From Physcomitrium patens (taxonomy: Eukaryota > Streptophyta > Bryopsida > Funariales > Funariaceae): DNA of 64,000 bases. Both the position numbers and the translations under genes were made by a program. The stretch lies in NCBI RefSeq assembly GCF_000002425.4, contig NC_037258.1, forward strand, positions 18,159,706-18,223,705, written 5' to 3'. This document shows, piece after piece, positions 18,850 through 31,950 of this stretch (positions are counted from its first letter, which is position 1; each line of letters opens with the position of its first letter). A model generated the notes under the pieces. That model was not told the origin of the DNA, did no database searches, and saw nothing but the letters and a program-made list of their open reading frames with translations.

Positions 18850-19188
<339 letters not shown>

Positions 19189-19224: not shown

Positions 19225-19258
19225 GGTGTTCTTGAACACCACCTCTTTGTGGAATGAG
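19225..19258 (+). promoter_or_regulatory. Histone-type 3' stem-loop and purine-rich element (H4)
   Basis: GGTGTTCTTGAACACC (19225-19240) forms a 6-bp stem with a 4-base loop, or 7 bp with a 2-base loop, starting 37 bases after the H4 stop. GGAATGAG (19251-19258) follows 10 bases later. The same arrangement lies 3' of the H2B gene. Size and position match the metazoan and algal histone mRNA stem-loop and downstream element. The role is inferred from that match and from recurrence at both histone genes. Confidence 0.65.
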
Positions 19259-19688
19259 GGATCTCCGGTTGGGTTCTGGTGTGTGTGTGTGTGGGGGGGG
19301 GTGTTGCGTGGTTGTTTTTGGGATGAACAGTGGGTATGGGAGCGTGGTGTGCATGGTGCGTTGTCCGTTTTGATGTTGTGTTTTTGCAATGTGTGAGAGA
19401 GGGTGGTAGTGTAGGGGGCACCTCGTGGCAGTGATGAGACATATTGTCCGTACCATTTGAGGCGAAAGCTATGCTGAATGGCAAGATCTGAAGCTTCGAG
19501 GTGTAGGGTTGTAGCGATGTGATGGTGAAGGCGTGGATGCGTTCGGCAGGAGTTTGGAGCGAGAGCGTGTTGCGTGTTTAGGCGTGTTGTGTGGGAAGAT
19601 GTGGAGGCATGGTGAGTGATAGTTTGTGTGACATGTTTGTGATGGAGTAAATATCGTACGTTGTTTTCCCCGCAGCAATGGATGACAG
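19259..19688. other. H4 3' flank, GC-rich and G/T-rich
   Basis: Contains a (TG)n and G-run stretch near 19280-19302 and GT-rich DNA throughout. No gene is recognised on either strand. The long antisense frames lack any conserved motif and are rich in His, Thr, Pro and Ser. Confidence 0.4.
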
Positions 19689-20134
19689 GTAGAGAGTAGA
19701 GGATAGGGGGTAAATTGCATGCAATTGGTAACTTGATAAGAGAAAGATGATAGCGATGGAACGGAATGGGAGTTCGCAGCTGCAGGGCAGCGTCCGAAAT
19801 TGGTGCGAGACGAGAGCGTGCGATAACTGTGATCCGGCATGTGATATCACGCGAAGAGAAACTTGGCAGGGCGTGGTAACACATTCGGAGGGTAGGGTCG
19901 GTAGACGGGAGTAGTACCGTGACGCGGCTTAGATGTGTATCGGCGGCGGCGGATTGGGAAGTCGTCCGCATCCGTTGTAGTCTAGATGGTTGGGATATTC
20001 GGCTCTCACCCGAGCGACCCGGGTTCGAGTCCCGGCAACGGAAGCTCCCGAGTGATAAAATGGACTACACATGGTTTTTTCCTCTTTTTCAGGTCAGCAC
20101 TTTGACGTCGTCGCAGTCGTCCCTGCCGAGAATC
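19689..20134 (+). repeat. tRNA-Glu segmental duplication, copy 1
   Basis: About 446 bases from GTAGAGAGTAGAGG to just past CGTCGTCGCAGTC are repeated at 26375-26821 in the same orientation with only a few differences. The segment carries the tRNA-Glu gene with about 280 bases of 5' flank and 90 of 3' flank. Copy 1 sits in GC-rich low-copy DNA next to H4, so it is probably the source locus. Confidence 0.9.
19971..20043 (+). tRNA. tRNA-Glu (anticodon CTC), copy 1
   Basis: 73 bases. Acceptor stem TCCGTTG/CAACGGA with discriminator A, no encoded CCA. The D arm includes TGGTTGGGATA. Anticodon loop CTCTCAC has anticodon CTC (20014-20016 region). The T arm includes GGGTTCGAGTCCC. Relative to copy 2, two bases differ (TTGGGATAT versus TTAGGATAC); the second puts a U-G pair at the top of the anticodon stem. 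All arms still fold. The two tRNA copies lie about 6.7 kb apart. Confidence 0.95.
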
Positions 20135-21000
20135 GAAGCCAGGGAGTGTCCCCCTATGATGGATAAAACAAGTCCAATTCACTCGCAGATGGAGAGTTTA
20201 TTTAATCTAGTGATTTAATTTAAGTTGTAATTGTTGATGTACATGCGAAATTAGATTTTCTCTAGTATCATTTGGATATTAACTAGTGGTAACACGTGGT
20301 ACAGTTGTTGGATATTTTGAACAATATTTCTGGTGGACACTGTATGGTCGTGCATTCAACCAAGTGCAAATTTGCCATACAGGTAGACCATGACACTAGT
20401 GCGATAAGAGTGTTCGAGTGCAGGAGTATTTCAAACAGAGCAAGTTCAAACACAATGTAATACGGTGATGTTACGATACTGGTGATTTTCTGCTGGTAAG
20501 TCCTATTGGCTCTTTGCATCGACTTTTACGACTCTTACGACTGTTTGAATGGAATATAGCTGCTTGGTAGGATTGCAGTTCAATGATAGTGAGAATTGGG
20601 GATCATACTTAAACTTTAATCAAAGTGATCTGCATACAGTCCCGACAACTTGGTTGTTGATTACTTGTTTGACATTTCTATCGTATGGCTTACTTACCTC
20701 TTTTATGTGTTTGATGGACACATTGCCCTTTATAAATATGGGATGCACAGTAAATTGGTTTGTCCGTTTTGGTTTGTTAGATTTTCTAAGTTACTAGAAT
20801 GCATTGACTTGGCCTAATTAGTGTAGAATGCAATGATTTGGCCTAATTAGTGTAGAATGCAATGATTTGGCCTAATTAGGCTTTGGAATGACCTACATAA
20901 CATAGGTTATTTCCCTGGCTACAGATGACATCAAAGACGTTAGCTTATTGCCAGCTCTTGGACCTTCAAACATATCAGTCTCATATTATTGTTGGGAGAG
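20135..21000. other. Intergenic DNA, no gene recognised
   Basis: Mixed composition, with short open frames on both strands and no recognisable domain. Contains the 29-bp triplication listed separately. Confidence 0.4.
20797..20882. repeat. Three tandem copies of a 29-bp unit
   Basis: The unit GAATGCAATGATTTGGCC plus TAATTAGTGTA repeats three times. Copies 1 and 2 differ at two or three bases, and the third loses its last few bases. Confidence 0.9.
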
Positions 21001-21009
21001 CTTAATGGC

Positions 21010-22549
21010 TTGCCCCTCACAGAACCAGCCTGTGCAATTTAAACATTGGATCTGGAGTAGCCGTGCTGCGGACGCTGCTGCCATTGGTGAGTTCAATTGT
21101 TGTGAAGTCCAAATTTTTCTTCATTGATTCCTTTTGTAGCTCATTCTGAGATTGCAGAGCGAGTTGGCAGAGCAAAGCGAAGAGCGAGATCGCGGCAGAG
21201 CAATTCCGAAATGACGGCGATAAGTTCTCGACTAGGTCTCGCCACATTGTGTTGCGATTCATAACACCAAACTCCCTTCATATCAGTTTTCTGCAGTCGG
21301 TTTCAGATTCATAGTTCTTAGGACTATTAGTCAGCCAACACTGTAGGTTACACACCAAGTAGAAACATGGCCAATTCACTCCCCCGAACTTGAGATTTGG
21401 TATCCCAAATTGCACCAGAGTAGGGCACTGCTCTCCAGTATGGGAGTAGTGCTCGAACAACCAATCTACACCTCATACACTTAGTGATCTAAAACAGATA
21501 AGAGCCCCTTTATCCAATATGGCTCCAAAGGTAGCACCATTGGTCAGATACTTGTGCACTTGAAAACCTGAAGCCTTCCGGCAAAGGACAATGCAGTACA
21601 GTCAAAGTGCAATCTTCTCTACCGAACAACTCCAAATCATTGAGATTATCCGTAACAAAGCAATGCAGTAGACTATTTTTGGTCATGTCGAAAGTAGAAG
21701 TCCTGAAGAACCCGCCCTGAAAGAACCACCTCTCTTCATCTACCAATGGAGACATGATCTCTATTGGACAATGGCTACTTCAATGTCAGCTTCTCATTAC
21801 TAGACAGCTTCCAGCACACCTATAACTCAACCTCAAGATACACAAGGAGATTTTTATTACTCCATGGACATCTTTTTTCACTGATGAAAACATAGACTAG
21901 TACAGATTCTCCTACCAAGTCTAGGTCCACTGCACAAGAGTGATTCAACATCTCCATCACAAGAACTATCTTTGGATAATAGCCTCCAACTTGGGAGAAG
22001 TTCCATTTATTGAAAAAACATCACCTTACATTAGTAAAACCGCAGGATTAACTGTCAAACGCAAAGACAATGATGTATCGAGAATACCGGCTAAAATCAG
22101 CCTCCTAAGACCGTCACCAAACTACTATTCCTTATCCACATAGTAATAGTTTTGAAACATCCGAATCAGTGCCTCAGGTGCAGAGCATTTGTACATTCCT
22201 AAACCGAATGAAAGCCATGCCACCACAACAAACTAAACCTAAGGGTGTGGGTAGACTTTGCATATAGTGAACAAAATTTATGATCCTTTGTACCTATCAA
22301 AGTCAATGACCACCTAAACAAAATAAAGACCCAATCCCACCAGCAAATATAGAGGACCATAGGCTCAGACCAAAGTCCTATCCACTTGCAATAATATGGG
22401 CTACAGAAGAACTTTCCATCTCTCCAAAATTTGCCTTCATCACATACAATAGATCCATCAATCACACCAAATGACATAGCAAATGAACTTATAAGAGCTA
22501 GTCTACACAACGAGTCTATTTTAATACATCTTAGATTAAAATTGATCAT
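21010..22549 (-). pseudogene. Possible decayed protein-coding remnant, family unknown
   Basis: On the minus strand, three frames (22199-22549, 21510-21755 and 21017-21262) and fragments between them have protein-like composition, with many Trp, Cys, Phe and Gly and internal stops. The middle piece reads like a soluble domain (EERWFFQGGFFRTSTFDM) and the upper one contains GSIVCDEGKFWRDGKFF. The Trp/Gly/Phe-rich character recalls beta-propeller (kelch-like) proteins, but no motif proves it. GC is higher than in the flanking transposons, so this is more likely a relic of a host gene than of a retrotransposon. Low certainty. Confidence 0.25.
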
Positions 22550-22579
22550 TACATATGAAAAGAGTTTTTTCTTTTACAA

Positions 22580-23125
22580 TGTCAAAGACATGAATCTCAA
22601 AGAAAAGAAAACCTCCATATACTCTTATATCACTTGGAAAAAATAGATATTCACTCAAAACTAATATAATATTGAAATTAAAGTAGCTATTGCAAAATAA
22701 AAATAATTAAAAAATCTCAAAATAAGACTAAAGACTAGAAAGGTATTAATAAGAGAGAAAAATTCTTCACTCTTGCCTCTACATATACTATTTAATAAGG
22801 AGGTATGTGGTAATTTTGTATAGGACTTTCAATATGTATAAAACTTGCAAGACATATGTCTTAATTTGCAAGTAATTTTTCTATATGTGTACTATATAGT
22901 AAGCTTGTACCACAAGCTATCAACACATGCAATACATTGCTAACTTGTTGGCCAAATTTTTAACCTACCAATCAACTACAAACATGTATAAAGTCAAAGC
23001 TCCATCTATGAAGCTTTTAAGAAGCTTTTCTAAAAAATATTATCAAATTGATTTATTTTTACTTATTTATAATTATTAATATTATTTAAATAATTATTTG
23101 AATAAATATATATATGTTTGGGACA
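22580..23125 (-). repeat. Gypsy LTR of element A
   Basis: 546 bases, same family as 50280-50820, 60092-60645, 14020-14547 and 24091-24623. It carries the diverged heat-shock-like block GAAGCTTTTAAGAAGCTTTT near 23010. Confidence 0.8.
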
Positions 23126-24090
23126 TTACTCTTTTTTCTAGAGATGAGTTCCACTAAGAGCAATGATCATATATTAATGAAGTCTAAGATGTAATGAATT
23201 ATATATTCCACATACTTTGATCTTTATTCTTTTTGAAGGTAGTTCATAAGGCTTCTTAGCCATCAATAATGTCTCATTCTAGAGCAAAAAGACTTATTTG
23301 GTATTTGATTGTTATTGAAGCCTTTATAACTTCTTTCTAACAAAACATTTGTAACACCATCAAGAGTCATTTCTACTTCTAATAAAATCACCAAACATTG
23401 GACGTTTCTTTCAAGGTTATGATATCAAATGTGTTGTATCTTGCCATTTATTCAAGAAAGAATATGTTGTTGTTAAGAATCTTCATCTCTATTATGTTGT
23501 CTTGAAGGTTGTAACAATTGCAATGTCTCATCTAATAAGTTTGTAAATAATAGTTTTTGAATTAAATCTATTGATTTTTACTTCTTTATTTTTTTAGTAA
23601 AAAAAATACAAAAAAATTATAAGCAAGGATAGAAAGTAGAGTGCAATCTTCTCTAAATTATATTTCTTTGATGATAAAGATTTTTTATTTTTTATTTTAG
23701 TTTTGATGGATATTATTAATAAAAAGCATCAATCTTCTTTATTGTAATTACAAGATTCTTGGCGGATTTTCCTATGCATTTATTAATATCATATTTGTAC
23801 TAATGAATAAGATATTTTAACCTATTTTGATGCTACCTTGAGTCTAGGATGTCTTTCATCTCAAACTCTTGATGATTATCTACTTCTGTAGGAGGTCGTG
23901 GAATTTATCTTTTTTTTGATATATTCACTATCCTATATAGCTCAAAAAGAGACATATAGAATATGATTTGGATCCTTAGAGACTTTGATAGATATAATTA
24001 TTAAGCAATTGGATTAATTTCTTCAAAAGGGTGACTATTCTTGATATTATGACAAAGTGGAATTAAAATTGTTTCTTATAATGGTATCAT
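22580..24090 (-). mobile_element. Truncated chromovirus A: 3' LTR plus end of pol
   Basis: The 3' LTR (22580-23125, minus orientation; TGTCAAAGACATG to GGGACA) is followed by about 960 bases matching the pol 3' end of element B (50821-51800), including the chromodomain region near 23740-23860. Homology stops at about 24090, exactly where a plus-oriented LTR of the same family begins. Heavily mutated. Confidence 0.75.
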
Positions 24091-24623
24091 GGACATATAC
24101 ATGTAAACTAATAATTACCTATATGGTTTAGATAAAAATAAATAAAAGTAGGTTAATTCTAGAATATCTTCTATAAAAGCTTTCTAGAAGCTTGGTAGAT
24201 ATTGCTTTGACTTTATAAGTATCTTTAATTGAATTTTTAGATTAGAAACGTGGTCAATAAGTTGGCCATATGCCACACATGTTGGTAGCTTAAAGAACAA
24301 GCTAACTATATGGCTCACACGTAGAAAACTTGCCTTGTAAGCTAAGGCATGTGTCCTGCAAAGTCAACATATATTAGAGGTCCTATAGAACATTGCCATG
24401 TAGCTCCTAATTAGATAGTATATATAGAGGCAAGAGTGAAGCCCTCTTCACTTTTGTCAACTCTTTTTTTGCTTTTAGTGTAGATTTAAGAATCTCTAGT
24501 TTTCTTGTCTTTTGGCAATAGTCATTCTAATTTTTTTTTAATATAAATACTACTTTATTGCTATTTTTTCACTTTTCTTTTAATACAGGTTTATGCATCT
24601 TCTTCCAATTCGTGTCCTTGACA
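24091..24623 (+). repeat. 5' LTR of element B'
   Basis: 533 bases, TGGACATATACATG to GTCCTTGACA. Contains a TATA box in TAGTATATATAGAGGCAAGAG near 24416-24430 and, upstream of it, TTCTAGAAGCTTG (24182-24194), a heat-shock-like block shared with the family. Confidence 0.8.
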
Positions 24624-24847
24624 AATTGACAAGAGTACACTTACAATATTAGAACTTTGTCTTTTCTTGATTAAGAGTGGATTACTTTTTTTTTTTTATA
24701 AGACATAAGTATATTAGAAGTTATGGATATATTAGAAGTATATTATCTTATTCTAAACTAATATTATTCTTAGTATCTTCTTTTTTCTCAAGTTCCCTCT
24801 TTTGCTTGTCTTGAGCAACATTAGATATTTATTTTTTAAGTATTATC

Positions 24848-25790
24848 ATGGCAGAGCTTGTTATAATAAAGAGTGCAATGGCACAAATGCAAGAAGAATT
24901 GAGGGAGTTAATGCTTGCGATGCATCAACTCAGTTTACTTCCACAAAGAGCAACAAGAATGGCAAGAAGTGATGATATAGATATGATTGGAGCTACTCCA
25001 ACATCTGCACCCAATCATGTTCCTTCTCCTATGGTGGAACATCCTTTCGGTACTAGAAAATCAACAATTGCCTTGCTTGAGAAGTTTGATGGCATTAGAT
25101 CTAAGTTTCAAGGATTTATCAATCAAGTATAATTTGAGATTGAACTTCAATCCTAAAGCTATCTAACAATAGGATCATAAGTTAGATTAATTGATATATT
25201 TCTTTCAGATTTAACATTATCATGGTTTTTATCTTTTTTAGAACAACGAGATCTAATATTGAATAATTTGAAGGCTTTTTTAGTAGAATTTCGTTCTATG
25301 TATGGAGAACATGATGCAACTTGTATTGCAACTAACAAGATCCATATTTTATGATAAAATAATTAATCTATAATATTATATGTTTTTTAATTTTGACAAC
25401 TTGCAACTGATATCAAGTGGGATGATGTTGCACTTATTAGCCAATTTCTCTATGGATTACAATATGAGGTAAAGAAGTTGATGCTCAACTTACATGATCC
25501 TCAAACATTGAGTCTAGCAATTGGTTTTGCTATAAAATGTGACAATCGACTTTTCAAATTTCAATTTGAGAGTAGGATAAGTGGGCTTTAATATTACTAT
25601 AATTCAATGGCAACACCAATGCCTCTTCAATACATACATTCAGAAGTAGAGGATATACAAATTGATGCAATACGTTTCAAACCTTTTACTGAACAAAAAA
25701 CGTCTTATTGCCATCAAGAAGGATTGTGTTTATATTGTGCAAAACCTAAGCATACTCCTCAATATTATCCAAAGAAGTGACGTAATTATA
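24848..25790 (+). pseudogene. Gag of chromovirus B' (broken)
   Basis: ATG 24848 opens 94 codons whose start (SAMAQMQEELRELMLAMHQL) looks like a coiled coil. The rest of gag continues in other frames with stops. A CCHC knuckle near 25732-25780 reads CLYCAKPKHTPQYY, with the last Cys changed to Tyr. Capsid-like protein of a chromovirus; not functional as it stands. Confidence 0.7.
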
Positions 25791-25974
25791 AAATGAGGAG
25801 TATGAATATCAAAGAAGATAATATATTAGAAAACGAGTTTGTCTAGCTACAATAGGAATCGTGTGGCTGGAACCTTGTACAATATCTAATGAAGGTCCTA
25901 TTCACTCTTTAGAATCCTCTCTATGTTTTACATTAAATATTATTTAAGGATCTAAACATTACAAAGCCTCTGCC

Positions 25975-26274
25975 TTGTTAGATTCAGGAGCCTCACCGTG
26001 TTTTTTAGATGAAGAATTTGTTAAAAGACTCAACATATCTTTAATAAGGAAAACTAAACCTGTTCACGTAGAAGTCACAGTTGGCCGCTCGTTGTCTTCT
26101 GAAGATGTTTGTCACAAAACTCTTTCTATACAAGTAATAACTAATGGTCATAATAGCTTTGTTGTATTTAATATCATTAGATCCCCCTCGAATCCAATCA
26201 TTTTAAGTTTACAGTGGTTAGAAAAATATAACCCTCAAGTTGATTGGATTTCTTGTATTCTCAATTTTTTTTAA
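25975..26274 (+). pseudogene. Retroviral-type aspartic protease of B'
   Basis: The frame starts with [17 protein letters not shown], the DSGA active site of gypsy proteases, and ends near SLQWLEKYNPQVDWI, the conserved end of the protease domain before RT. 99 codons, then a stop and loss of homology 100 bases later. Upstream homology extends a little beyond the ORF start. Confidence 0.8.
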
Positions 26275-26374
26275 AAGTATAATTAAGAATGTAGTTAATT
26301 AAGTAGAAAATCATAAGTCTAGTACAATTGAACCTACGTTTGTAGGTGCAAGAGCTTTCTTACATGCTTCAAAA

Positions 26375-26821
26375 GTAGAGAGTAGAGGATAGGGGGTAAA
26401 TTGCATGCAATTGGTAACTTGATAAGAGAAAGATGATAGCGATGGAACGGAATGGGAGTTTGCAGCTGCAGGGCAGCGTCCGAAATTGGTGCGAGACGAG
26501 AGCGTGCGATAACTGTGATCCGGCATGTGATATCATGCGAAGAGAAACTTGGCAGGGCGTGGTAACACATTCGGAGGGTAGGGTCGGTAGACGGGAGTAG
26601 TACCGTGACGCGGCTTAGATGTGTATCGGCGGCGGCGGATTGGGAAGTCGTCCGCATCCGTTGTAGTCTAGATGGTTAGGATACTCGGCTCTCACCCGAG
26701 CGACCCGGGTTCGAGTCCCGGCAACGGAAGCTCCCGAGTGATAAAATGGACTACACATGGTTTTTTCCTCTTTTTCAGGTCAGCACTTTGACGTCGTCGC
26801 AGTCCTCCCCGGAGAGAATTG
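26375..26821 (+). repeat. tRNA-Glu segmental duplication, copy 2
   Basis: Near-identical to 19689-20134. The left edge joins the truncated gypsy B'. The right edge (after GAGAGAATTGA) joins unrelated low-copy DNA. The transposon-side context shows that this is the derived copy, although its tRNA matches the plant consensus better than copy 1 does. Confidence 0.9.
26657..26729 (+). tRNA. tRNA-Glu (anticodon CTC), copy 2
   Basis: 73 bases with all arms pairing. D-arm TGGTTAGGATA, anticodon stem-loop CTCGG-CTCTCAC-CCGAG, T arm GGGTTCGAGTCCC. It retains the consensus bases altered in copy 1. The flanking 5' and 3' sequences came with the duplication, including the T-rich run after the gene that can end Pol III transcription, so it is probably expressed. 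Confidence 0.95.
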
Positions 26822-28160
26822 ATCCTCTTCTTTTTCTCAAAAACCGAATTTTGTTTTTTGACTACTGAAATATCTTTTAGTTCTAGCTAAGCCTGCCCTT
26901 TAATTGGTCGGCAGCAAGTAAAGCTAGTAGAGAAGGAAATGTACTGATTAATCAGTGGTAGAAACAGTTATATTGAGAACCTCTATTACCAAGGGTAGTC
27001 AAAATTCGAGCCCACACATAGTCCGAGTATGTCTCCAAACCAAATTGTATCCATGTTGGTTCTGACTCACACTGATGGTTTCGTTCCTGCGAGGTATTAG
27101 AATGAATGCAGGAACAGGTCGACAGAATTACATAATCAAAACTGGCTCGGACTCGAGATATACTCTACCCTATTCCTCCATCACAATTATGAAACCTCAA
27201 GTCAAATCCATAATTCGACACGGCAGAAAAAACCATTTAGATGAGTAGGGAGTTGAATATGGAAGGAGTTCTCACGAGACCATAAACACGTCAGTTTCCA
27301 TGGAGAATTTGAAAATATTTTCTAGTATAATAGGACATCTATTGGGCAAGGGTACCGGAAGGGAGACAGCAAGGGACAATGATATTCTATTCGACACGCT
27401 AAAGCCAACAAACTACATGGAGATCATTCTCTCGGCGCTGAAGCTAGCGAACAGTTATGAACTTTCCATTGGAACTGATTGATGTCAACAAAGTGAGAAG
27501 CGAGACGTTGGTGCTGCATAGCAGTATCCTCGATCCCCATATGCCACTGTCGCCTGACGGCGATGAAGCCACTGGTACTCTATTTCTCCCTTTCATCGTC
27601 AACGTGGGGTCTGCAGGTTCATATGATGCAACGGTTTTATGCACGCTTCATTGCAACTTCGTAGTAATCTCAAAAAATGTAAGCAATTAAACTTACAGCA
27701 AGAACTGTAGATCTATTGAGGGTGTAACAACGCTGAATCCATACAGGACTTGTGATGAAATGGAACGACCAATCATATCAAAACCAGTTACTATGGTGCG
27801 AGAAAATACGGGAATTGTTTGCAGCAAACCATCTCACAATGAACTGAGGGGTGCCAAACCGGCTTGTATATAAATTGGTAATTTTTATTTATTTATTATT
27901 ATTGAGTGAGTTGTTCCACGGTGGCATGCAAAATATAACTGTAAAATTCTTAGGAATTCTAAGACCTAGGTTCGAAGAAGCCGGTTGTATTTGGGTTTTT
28001 GGATTCTATACAAGGAGGTTCTAAAACCGGGGGATAACTAGGTTTCTCAGGTTTCCTAGGGATCATGCTAGTATAATGTATGTGGCAACACTATTGTATA
28101 ACATGAATTCTTCCTTGAGTATGCACTAGACTCCTAGCTATGGAAGGTAAATAGAAAATG
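26822..28160. other. Low-copy DNA, no gene recognised
   Basis: Moderate GC. Two overlapping plus frames (27300-27482 and 27457-27690) together look mildly protein-like, for example SSILDPHMPLSPDGDEATG, but neither matches a family I know and there is no clear start or splice evidence. It could be a small relic of a host gene. Confidence 0.3.
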
Positions 28161-28169
28161 CAACAACAA

Positions 28170-28630
28170 GATCTTACTAAGTCTAATAGAATCTTAATTA
28201 AATTCTAAGTAATCTTTAATAATTCTGATTAAACTTTAATCAATCTAAAAGAAATTATAAAAGAAACATAAAAAATTCATAAATTAATTTTAAAGAAAAA
28301 TAATAAAAAATCCTAAAAAATACAAAATAACCTTTTAAAATTTTAAAAATAGTAATTTTAAAAGAAGTAATAAAGAATCTTAAAGAAATATAAAAATAGA
28401 AATTCTATATTAATCATAATCAAATCTTAATGTAGCCCTAATCAAATCCTAATAAAATTCTAAAAATTGTAAACAAATCCTAATAAAATCCTAATCAAAT
28501 ATTAATTAAATTCTAATCAAATCTTAAACAAATTCTAGACCAAACTTTAATGAAATCTTAACCATACCATAGACCAAATCTTAATTAAATTTTAATCAAA
28601 TTCTAATAAAATTCTAATTAACTCATTAAT
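28170..28630. repeat. Degenerate 11-bp tandem repeat array
   Basis: About 40 imperfect units with consensus CAAATTCTAAT and variants CAAATCCTAAT, AAAATCCTAAT, CAAATCTTAAA and TAAATTCTAAT. Units are clearest at 28430-28620, where the 11-base period can be followed for more than 12 consecutive copies; the left part is more decayed and the limits are approximate. No protein is encoded. Confidence 0.65.
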
Positions 28631-31112
28631 TTTAAATATCTCAAAGAAAATCCTACATAAATCTTAACAACTTCTAAAGTTTTTTTAAAATCTCAATAAA
28701 TAATAATCAATAAAACTAACAAATTGAAAGAAAAGCTTCCAAAGCCTCTTAGATGTTGGCAACCCTCTTCCAACTTAAATGTTGATCTTCCAACAATGTG
28801 TATTTCTTAGTGAACTATCGAATTACTTAAAAAATTAGCTAGTCTGTAGATTTATGTCATAATTGTTCTCGTCAATTTGTGCTTCAATCAAATTGGCAGG
28901 TGTTAGAAGATTGCAAAATCCCTCACTAACTCTAAATTTCAACCATCCAAGACCACAATCTATAAAAACTCTCATAATCATAAATCTAAGTATTCAATTA
29001 ATATAATTTTTTAAAAATATATTTAAGATAAATATAATTATATAATAATAAAATTATATCTATAAATATATTATGATATTTACAAAATCTTTAAATTTAT
29101 AAATTTCTTTTTATTTTTCAAAATCCAAGTCCATTGAATACATCTCTAACTTTAAAAAACCTTCAAAATTCAATATATTTTCAAATCACATGAAATAAAC
29201 TTTAAAAAATTCTTTTATAATTTTTCTCTCAAATTTGATTCTTAAATCAATCAAAGAACCTCAAAGTGGTTGTAGGTATGTGATTTTGTACCTCGGGGTC
29301 TAATTTTGATCTTATTTTACAACCAATCTTTTGTAGATATCAATTCTTCATATTTTGAGGTGATTTTTTTACTAATCCTATTTTTAATTTTTCTTTTCAA
29401 AATAACTATATTAATTATTTATCTCATTTATTTTGATTCAACTCATTTATGTCATTACAAAATAAATAAAAGTCTCTTCAAAATGGCAATATTAATATTT
29501 ATTAGTTTTTACTACTTTCTTGTCTATTATTTATATTTCTAAAAGAATTTGCCAAAGTATTTTTATTTAAGCTCTTCTATAATATAATTTTTTTTTTTTT
29601 TGTTTTACTATATAGTTGTGGTATCACACAACAATGTTTGTTCGGCTCTTTTCTTGTCAATAAAAAGTTTGAATCCACGTGCATCTAAAGGTATGTAATT
29701 TATACTAATATGGATTGGATTCAATTATCCATTTTGTGTTAAGTAGTGATCATCTGATGGCTCAATTTTGTACATGATTTGTACAAGAATATCTTCTTTC
29801 ATTGCTTATGTAAGTTGCTTCTTAATGTTCATGATACTATCTTCAAACAATAATAGAGAAGCAAGGAATTGATATTGAAGGTAGTATTATACTACTCTTG
29901 GTTGTGTCAAGAAGGGGTTCTAGGATTGCAATGAGTTTTGTTGAAGATAGCTGATTTTATTGAGTTCTTTGTGGTTTAATATTGAAGGGATGATAAGTGT
30001 TTGGATGGTTTGCATTTGGTTGGCAAGATCTTTGAGTAAGAAATCAAGGTATATGAGAGGTTTTTATTTAGGTGGAGATTGTTCCATGCAATAAATTTTT
30101 GATTAAGATCATATGTATACGAATTTAGATTTTATTGTTTTGTGGCACTTAAGTAATTGGCAGTGATTGACTTTTTGGAATTTTATCCAAGTTCTTATTT
30201 TGACTTGGAATAATATTTATCAAACTTCATAAAATACTATCCTAAGATAGAATTGTCTTTTTTCTAAGTCATGTTTATATTTTTGGTACCAAATGTATCA
30301 CATTATGGCCCACTAAATAATGTTCTGTATAATTTTTTTGATAATGGAATGTGAGTTGTCTATATACTAAGAAGTAGAATCATCATGTATATTTAGATTG
30401 CACTTGGATATGGAGAATATCTTAGATAGAGTTGATTTTTAAGTAAGACTAAGCATAAAAAAATCCACTTCGTATTCAGTATTAATACTTATTTTACTGA
30501 TCGAAATCTTGGTAGACGCGTATAATATCCGGAAATTTCTAACCAATTGAAACCTAATTTTTCGATAGTTGTGACATATTCTCCTTTATTCTCATCTTAT
30601 ATCCTACATACTAACTGCCGGACCTACTGTAAGTTTGTTGGCGTTGGAAAAACCTAGAAAATGTACAATGAAGCGGAAGGTAGAGGATGTATTGGTACAT
30701 TACCTTATTAGAACAGCATCCATTTTCCCGTCGTATGAGAACATTTATTTGACAGCTGCTACATATATATAATTTGCTGTTCGGTATTGTAATGAATAAT
30801 CAAGTAATTGTTTGCTACATTTTGTGATTAATTGTGTAAAATGAAGGGAATAATTGAAAAACATTTCCGAAATGGGGCGAATATAAGTAATTGGTTACAT
30901 GGAGGGTTTAATCAGTTTATTAGTAAAAGTGCGAGACTGAATATTTCACTGTACAGATGTGGACACTGTGACATTGTCCCTTTTGTGGAAAATTTATAAT
31001 CTTACAGGTGGTAATGAGCGATATATAAGATGCATTTTCTGCAGTTAGAATATTGTCTGTACAGACAGTTGGGGTAATGACCACAGGAAATTGTATGCAC
31101 ATTCGCCACATT
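28631..31112. other. AT-rich DNA, no gene or assignable element
   Basis: Very AT-rich to about 29700, then T/G-rich. A 78-codon frame at 29306-29542 is Ile/Phe/Leu-only low complexity. From about 30480 composition becomes balanced, leading into the H2B 3' flank. Possible retrotransposon relics around 29600 and 30290 could not be confirmed. Confidence 0.4.
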
Positions 31113-31333
31113 CATGCAGAATAGTAATCGATCAAACATGCCTGTTTCTCATCGTTCACAGACAGTGAATTCCTTACGGCGTGCCTTCTTTGACACAGCA
31201 GTGAGACAGACTTCAGCCTGGGCCCCTAGAAACAGTCAACAGCATACATTGACAGAAGTAAACACGCAAGACTACAGCCTCCCTCCACAACAAAAACAAT
31301 TGCTACGCCCTAGGGGTGAAGGAGCGTCGATTT

Positions 31334-31362
31334 CATCCCAGTTAATGGTGTTCATAAACACC
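31334..31362 (-). promoter_or_regulatory. Histone-type 3' stem-loop and purine-rich element (H2B)
   Basis: On the minus strand GGTGTTTATGAACACC (31362-31347) starts 28 bases after the H2B stop. It has the same 6-bp GGTGTT/AACACC stem as the H4 hairpin, with loop TATG. GGGATGAA follows 8 bases downstream, matching the H4 GGAATGAG. The surrounding bases of the two genes are otherwise unrelated, so the element appears conserved by function. Confidence 0.65.
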
Positions 31363-31389: not shown

Positions 31390-31950
31390 CTAGGCGCTGG
31401 TGAACTTCGTCACGGCCTTTGTGCCTTCTGAGACTGCGTGCTTAGCCAACTCTCCTGGGAGAATCAGACGAACTGCAGTCTGAATCTCGCGAGAAGTGAT
31501 CGTCGGCTTCTTGTTATACCGAGACAGTCGGGCCGCCTCTTGCGCCAGCTTCTCGAAAATATCGTTAATGAACGAGTTCATAATACCCATAGCCTTCGAT
31601 GAAATACCAGTGTCAGGATGAACCTGTCGACAAGACAACCGTAACACGCCACTCAGCACCCACAAAAAACGAGACACTCGTTGAACTCATCGCAAAAATT
31701 CTCAACAAACATACATTTTAAGTAACCACGCACACCCACGACCCAAGAGAAGCCGGACGAGCAGTCTCCATACCTGCTTCAACACCTTGTATATGTAGAT
31801 CTTGTACGTCTCCACGTTCTTCTTCGACTTCTTCTTCTTCGAATCGCCCTTGGTGTCGGCCTTGATCTTCTTCTCCGCCTTCTTCACCACGGGCTTCTTC
31901 TCAGCCTTGGACTTGGTAGCCTTCTGCTCTTCTCCTGCCTTCGGGGCCAT
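31390..31950 (-). CDS. Histone H2B, with one intron
   Basis: Core histone that pairs with H2A. Exon 1 is 31950-31774 (59 codons: [15 protein letters not shown], a Lys-rich tail, then [16 protein letters not shown]). Exon 2 is 31623-31390 (77 codons: [13 protein letters not shown] to [10 protein letters not shown]). The 150-base intron (31773-31624) begins GTATGG, ends GACAG and is phase 0. The 136-residue product is normal for plant H2B, and the C-terminal AVTKFTSA helix holds the lysine usually ubiquitinated. Most core-histone genes of the replication type lack introns, so the intron inside the alpha-1 region (KVLKQ/VHPDTG) is notable. Upstream lie a TATA box and E2F sites, and downstream the shared histone hairpin. 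Confidence 0.98.

What the first reader, a model, noticed from the sequence alone, without database searches (positions are those of the whole stretch)
19225..31362. Shared histone-type stem-loop plus purine element after H4 and H2B
H4 (19225-19240) has GGTGTTCTTGAACACC; H2B (31362-31347, minus) has GGTGTTTATGAACACC. Both are 16 nt with an identical 6-bp stem, a 4-nt loop of form YWTG (H4 CTTG, H2B TATG), and start 28-37 nt after the stop. A purine-rich GGRATGA follows 8-10 nt downstream in each. No AATAAA is obvious between stop and hairpin. Metazoan histone mRNAs end in a 16-nt hairpin (6-bp stem, 4-nt loop) followed by a purine-rich downstream element bound by U7 snRNA; green algae also have 3' palindromes. 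Land-plant histone mRNAs are generally described as polyadenylated without one. Two unrelated histone genes on opposite strands sharing this but no other 3' sequence suggests a retained or independently evolved histone 3'-end system with a different stem sequence.
Basis: partly seen in the sequence, partly recalled or inferred. Interest (0 to 1): 0.88.

Follow-up and report, generated by a model that had tools for sequence, protein, structure and literature searches.

The report
Animal-type histone stem-loop in moss
Most of the H4, H3 and H2B histone genes found in this plant genome (very likely a moss) carry the same hairpin just after the stop codon, and the genome also encodes the protein family that binds such hairpins in animals, although land plants are usually said to have neither.

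Summary
The two hairpins are real (19225-19240 +; 31362-31347 -). In the same genome (470 Mb, probably the moss Physcomitrium patens; inferred) GGTGTT-N4/5-AACACC lies 19-37 nt after the stop in 12 of 14 H4, 7 of 9 intronless H3 and 7 of 9 H2B genes returned by the searches, and in three H2A genes found through the hairpin. It is found in 0 of 5 intron-bearing (H3.3-like) H3 and 0 of 3 H2A.Z genes. The purine element is not: GGRATGA follows 3 of 27 hairpins, though a weaker downstream signal exists. U7, Lsm10 and Lsm11 were not tested (U7 searches did not complete) and mRNA 3' ends are unknown. Against simple specificity, the bare palindrome occurs 252 times genome-wide (control 33); of 20 sites read, 14 lie in two repeat families, 4 in histone genes, 2 unassigned. 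A paper seen here says plant histone mRNAs lack this hairpin, with Volvox and Chlamydomonas as exceptions.

The parts
18877..19188 (+). histone H4 gene (103 aa, no intron), stop at 19186-19188
   Evidence: one search finds 14 H4 genes 99-100% identical to it
19225..19240 (+). histone 3' stem-loop GGTGTT-CTTG-AACACC, 36 nt after the H4 stop
   Evidence: best Rfam match of this stretch is RF00032 Histone3 in register, 16.3 bits (gathering 34, E 0.036)
19251..19257 (+). GGAATGA in a loosely similar downstream region (possible downstream element)
   Evidence: GGRATGA in 3 of 27 hairpin genes
31774..31950 (-). histone H2B exon 1 (splice sites inferred from GT/AG)
   Evidence: read by eye
31390..31623 (-). 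histone H2B exon 2, stop at 31392-31390
   Evidence: PF00125 match C6:18191170-18191337
31347..31362 (-). histone 3' stem-loop GGTGTT-TATG-AACACC, 27 nt after the H2B stop
   Evidence: no RF00032 match up to E 10
31333..31339 (-). GGGATGA, possible downstream element, 7 nt after the stem

Best explanation
The hairpin is the SLBP-binding 3' stem-loop of replication-dependent histone mRNAs, kept in a land plant (very likely the moss Physcomitrium patens). Shown: a 16-17-nt hairpin with one stem, GGTGTT/AACACC, lies 19-37 nt after the stop of most H4, H3 and H2B genes found and of three H2A genes, not after the H3.3-like or H2A.Z genes read; two SLBP-domain proteins are encoded. Inferred: SLBP binds the hairpin in the pre-mRNA, the transcript is cut a few nucleotides after it by the CPSF73-type nuclease shared with polyadenylation, and the mature mRNA ends in the stem-loop without poly(A), tying histone supply to S phase. 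The downstream region may position the cut through U7 or another guide; that step is open.
Against: No transcript data: 3' ends and poly(A) status unknown. U7, Lsm10, Lsm11 untested. The stem does not vary, so no compensatory change proves RNA pairing, and the word is also a DNA palindrome. Rfam's hairpin model scores H4 under its threshold and H2B not at all. 6 of 32 core genes lack the hairpin. The palindrome occurs 252 times (control 33), in repeats at 14 of 20 sites read. TPNK is only partly kept (TPDI). The SLBP proteins are spliced models: one exon match runs into a TAA, which lies at the splice donor.
Confidence: 0.8

Rival explanations
1. The hairpin is an SLBP-bound RNA element but the mRNAs are polyadenylated; SLBP would control stability, export or translation and ordinary cleavage and polyadenylation would make the end further downstream.
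For: PMC6827988 (passages) holds that plant histone mRNAs are polyadenylated. GGRATGA is not conserved (3 of 27) and U7 could be neither found nor excluded. A wheat H3 3'-flank element for accurate mRNA 3'-end formation is cited in PMC7457121 (passages).
Against: Distance from the stop and an A after the stem (26 of 27, ACC in 16 of 27) resemble processed animal ends (recall). The H3.3-like and H2A.Z genes read lack the hairpin, like the animal split into non-polyadenylated and polyadenylated histones (recall).
Confidence: 0.3
2. The palindrome is a DNA element (a binding site or a termination site), not an RNA hairpin.
For: GGTGTT-N4-AACACC is a perfect DNA palindrome; no compensatory changes; the same palindrome recurs in repeats.
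Against: It lies 19-37 nt after the stop in the genes counted, and the genome encodes two proteins with the domain that binds such an RNA hairpin.
Confidence: 0.06
3. Shared ancestry, recent duplication or gene conversion of histone loci, without function.
For: Three H4 copies (L027-L029) have identical 300-nt 3' flanks; two of them share 2347 bp at 99.8%.
Against: Other H4 flanks share little beyond the hairpin, and it recurs in four histone types on many contigs.
Confidence: 0.02

Closest known systems
Metazoan replication-dependent histone mRNA 3' stem-loop and SLBP (Rfam RF00032, Pfam PF15247)
   Same: Hairpin with 6-bp stem starting GG and ending CC, U-A pair closing the loop, mostly 4-nt loop, short distance from the stop, in genes of all four core histones, missing from the H3.3-like and H2A.Z genes read; SLBP with full RNA-binding domain.
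   Different: Stem GGTGTT instead of GGYYYT (G at position 4; metazoan consensus recalled); three genes with 5-nt loops; RF00032 gives 16.3 of 34 bits for H4 and nothing for H2B; no conserved U7-type element established; the SLBP models are 551 aa with a long N-terminal part.
Green algal histone 3' palindromes (Volvox, Chlamydomonas)
   Same: Histone hairpin in the green lineage (PMC6827988, passages); most Chlamydomonas replication histone transcripts are non-polyadenylated and a small constant group polyadenylated (PMC8226298, passages and histone section).
   Different: Those are algae with histone genes in divergent pairs; the same section reports no such arrangement in the moss. Algal hairpin sequences were not compared here.
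Land-plant histone mRNAs as described in print
   Same: The H3.3-like and H2A.Z genes read here have no hairpin.
   Different: PMC6827988 (passages) says plant histone mRNAs lack the stem-loop apart from exceptions including Volvox and Chlamydomonas, and that a search in Solanaceae gave no SLBP candidate; here both are present.

Membership tests
SLBP / histone stem-loop system (broad kind) | Hairpin of 6 bp and about 4-nt loop shortly after the stop of core histone genes | tested here: met
   H4 12 of 14, H3 7 of 9, H2B 7 of 9; loop 5 nt in three genes; 3 H2A without denominator
SLBP / histone stem-loop system (broad kind) | Missing from replication-independent variants | tested here: met
   0 of 5 intron-bearing H3, 0 of 3 H2A.Z. 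Named as variants from introns and sequence (recall), not expression; only about 50 nt after the H2A.Z stops and about 80 nt after the H3 stops were read
SLBP / histone stem-loop system (broad kind) | SLBP with RNA-binding domain and the Arg that reads stem G7 | tested here: met
SLBP / histone stem-loop system (broad kind) | mRNA ends at the stem-loop without poly(A) | not testable with these tools
Rfam RF00032 Histone3 | Score above the family's gathering threshold | tested here: not met
   H4 16.3 bits against 34; H2B no match; whole-genome search unanswered
Metazoan U7-dependent processing | U7 snRNA (RF00066) | not tested
   nine requests unanswered
Metazoan U7-dependent processing | Lsm10 and Lsm11 | not tested
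   no search was made
Metazoan U7-dependent processing | Purine-rich downstream element | tested here: inconclusive
   GGRATGA in 3 of 27. Best 8-nt motif in 23 downstream flanks 143.2 against shuffle mean 121.0, sd 5.3, largest of 60 135.7; 27 upstream flanks 141.9 against 132.0, sd 6.0, largest of 40 151.4. The motif reads like ACTTCTGA, not purine-rich, and paralogues may inflate it

The most novel reading that the evidence does not exclude
Mosses keep a working cell-cycle histone mRNA system ending in a stem-loop without poly(A), bound by two SLBPs, with a stem of their own and loops that differ by histone type (in the sets read, third loop base T in the nine distinct 4-nt H4 loops, first base T and third A or G in the seven H3 loops).
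Probability: 0.5. Interest if true: 0.88.

Novelty: new variant of a known kind. Interest (0 to 1): 0.82.

Why it matters
Histone stem-loop processing is described as a trait of animals and some green algae that plants lack. If a moss keeps it, the loss happened inside land plants and not at their origin, and there is a plant with good genetics in which to ask what SLBP control of histones does, whether U7 is needed, and how a lineage gives the system up. The genes, the binding protein and a built-in set of variant controls are named here, so it can be tested directly.

Tried and rejected
Rejected: chance (census); recent duplication as the whole explanation (true for the three H4 copies L027-L029, not for the rest); GGRATGA as a conserved element (3 of 27); the palindrome as unique to histone genes (252 sites).

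What the counts cover. The genome tool scores only the best candidates, so the gene numbers are of genes returned. PF00125 returned 42 places: 9 intronless H3, 10 exon rows of 5 intron-bearing H3, 9 H2B, 3 that I first took for H2B and that read as H2A.Z after fetching (L074-L076, by recall of the sequence), and 11 not fetched (C17:4440232, H3-like, and 10 weaker places). Of these I fetched 24 3' ends; the window H2B and L043 were already held. The H2A search did not complete, so H2A has no denominator. Whether the core genes without the hairpin (H4 L039, L040; H3 L064, L065; H2B L080, L081) are variants was not tested. Their flanks were read for 300 nt (H4) or about 80 nt (H3, H2B). L028 and L029 were left out of the 27-gene set as identical to L027; 4 of 27 downstream flanks were too short for the motif test.

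Literature: 10 answered searches (malformed). Searches found no paper; the others list at most 20 of the papers found, judged by title and abstract start. Among the listed papers none announced SLBP or a histone stem-loop in a moss or other land plant. The library is open-licence PMC only, and database annotations may exist. Passages were seen of PMC6827988, PMC7457121, PMC10388802, PMC8226298 (plus its histone section), PMC12803260 (no match for plants or algae; 'moss' matched unrelated words) and PMC5089844. The 2008 survey of histone 3'-end processing in protists (recalled) is not held.
Full report
WHAT WAS CHECKED. The window lies in a 470-Mb genome held in 101 contigs (C6:18159706-18223705). 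No call names the organism. Genome size, a 27th contig of 5.3 Mb and an open frame that reads like a NAC transcription factor (by eye) fit the moss Physcomitrium patens; this is inference and recall. Both hairpins are as described and fold as stated. They start 36 nt (H4) and 27 nt (H2B) after the stop codon; GGRATGA starts 10 and 7 nt after the stem.

LOCAL CONTROL. In 264 kb around the genes the only perfect GGNNNT-N4-ANNNCC hairpins are three: the two in the window and one after a second H4 copy just beyond the window end. That copy is a recent duplicate (2347 bp at 99.8%, identical coding sequence), so it is not independent. A covariance model built from ten H4 hairpins and the window's H2B hairpin was run over 285,620 bases: four rows had E below 0.01, all at these three sites (one row is the other strand of the H2B palindrome); the best other match had E 0.79.

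CENSUS. The counts are of genes that the searches returned. H4: 14 genes. Eleven have GGTGTT-N4-AACACC 31-36 nt after the stop, one (L031) has a 5-nt loop at 37 nt, and two (L039, L040; 99% identical proteins) have none. H3: nine intronless genes; seven have the hairpin 19-33 nt after the stop (L043; L061, L062, L063, L066, L067, L068), two do not (L064, L065). H2B: nine genes (window and L077-L084); seven have it 23-34 nt after the stop, two of these with 5-nt loops (L079, L084); L080 and L081 do not. H2A: three genes (L049, L052, L053) were found because their hairpins were in the pattern list; gaps 32, 28 and 33 nt; no rate can be given. Variant controls: five intron-bearing H3 genes (L069-L073) and three H2A.Z genes (L074-L076) have none. 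Fisher exact p is 3.9e-5 for 26 of 32 against 0 of 8, 9.9e-5 without the window genes and the two extra H4 copies (22 of 28), and 0.021 for H3 alone. The genes are related, so these values overstate independence.

THE ELEMENT. Two scans did not ask for the stem sequence: 14 H4 flanks of up to 250 nt, GG..CC hairpins, 4-nt loop; 20 3' ends, any hairpin of six standard pairs with G-C at the base, 4- or 5-nt loop; both found only GGTGTT/AACACC. The other hairpins were found with the stem fixed. In 27 distinct hairpin genes the next base is A in 26 and the next three ACC in 16. Loops: H4 CTTG (twice), ACTT, ATTG, CTTT, ACTG, CATT, CTTA, GTTG and CTTTT; H3 TAAC, TCAC, TAAT, TTAT, TGAT, TCAT, TTGT; H2B TATG (twice), CATT, TATT, ATTA, TTATT, ATATT; H2A TAAT, TTGA, TCAT. 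Apart from the three identical copies, pairs of H4 flanks share only stretches of 17-50 nt, all but one overlapping the hairpin. The stem does not vary, so there is no compensatory evidence for RNA pairing.

DOWNSTREAM REGION. GGRATGA follows 3 of 27 hairpins: H4 L027, the window H2B and H2B L077. An ungapped motif search in 23 downstream flanks found a best 8-mer (like ACTTCTGA, mostly 18-23 nt after the stem) scoring 143.2 against a shuffle mean of 121.0 (sd 5.3, largest of 60 135.7); 27 upstream flanks scored 141.9 against 132.0 (sd 6.0, largest of 40 151.4). By eye a GAAT, GGAT or GAAA string often lies about 8-16 nt after the stem. Paralogues can inflate such a signal. A guide RNA is possible, not shown.

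THE BINDING PROTEIN. PF15247 (SLBP RNA-binding domain) matches two places, two exons each: C10:1730716-1731138 (-) and C14:436836-437262 (+). One exon match includes a TAA, which lies at the splice donor. Joining three exons at GT/AG sites gives two models of 551 aa with 114.4 and 113.5 bits to PF15247 (cut-off 27), over positions 2-70 of 70. The closest solved structures are SLBP 4tux, 4tv0 and 4tuw and human SLBP 4l8r (that 4l8r is human is recalled). In human SLBP the only base-specific contacts run from Arg181 to stem G7, and phosphorylation of Thr171 raises affinity (PMC10388802, passages). By the alignment the moss domain has Arg and Thr at these positions; TPNK reads TPDI. All these stems begin GG, so the changed stem centre is compatible with that contact.

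GENOME-WIDE RESULT AGAINST SIMPLE SPECIFICITY. The exact palindrome occurs at 252 places; the reversed control pattern at 33. Only the first 50 places (C1 to C5) were listed. I read 20 of them, namely the 15 with uncommon loops that were not already known and 5 with the two common loops; two more are H4 genes L035 and L037. Of the 20, ten lie in one repeat family (75-89% alike over up to 1 kb), four in a second short repeat, four are histone genes (one H3, three H2A) and two are unassigned. So the excess over the control is at least partly repeat-borne; without annotation I cannot say how many sites follow ordinary genes.

LITERATURE. [quoted passage not shown] PMC8226298 (passages and histone section) describes non-polyadenylated replication histones in Chlamydomonas and no divergent histone pairs in Marchantia, Physcomitrium and Arabidopsis. 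Ten searches (listings capped) showed no report of SLBP or the stem-loop in a moss; the one paper holding SLBP, Physcomitrella and histone as whole words (PMC5089844, passages) names the moss in a tree of nucleotidyl transferases.

VERDICT. The hairpin is real, common to most H4, H3 and H2B genes found and present in three H2A genes, missing from the variant genes read, and accompanied by two SLBP homologues. The most likely mechanism is SLBP-dependent 3'-end formation or control of replication-dependent histone mRNAs. Whether the mRNAs lack poly(A), and whether U7 takes part, is not shown.

Noticed in passing
L045, L047, L048, L051, L054, L056-L060: A repeat family (75-89% alike over up to 1 kb) carries the GGTGTT-N4-AACACC palindrome; L048 has exactly the H4 hairpin. 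Copies were picked by the palindrome, so its conservation is unknown; mimicry of the histone stem-loop is conceivable, not tested.
   Followed up: partly
L041, L046, L050, L055: A second, short repeat (75-81% alike over 75-147 nt) also spans the palindrome.
   Followed up: no
19678-20043 and 26364-26729: A stretch next to a tRNA-Glu (CTC) gene is duplicated within the window, 98% over 300 nt.
   Followed up: no
C6:18178582, C6:18224848, C6:18331903: Three H4 genes within about 154 kb have identical 300-nt 3' flanks.
   Followed up: partly
L031, L079, L084: One H4 and two H2B genes have 5-nt loops on the same stem.
   Followed up: no
L040, about 34 nt after the H4 stop: One H4 gene without the standard hairpin has GGTTT and AAACC nine bases apart at the usual place, perhaps a decayed or different hairpin (by eye).
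   Followed up: no
window 31624-31773: The H2B gene has an intron although it carries the stem-loop (splice sites by eye).
   Followed up: no
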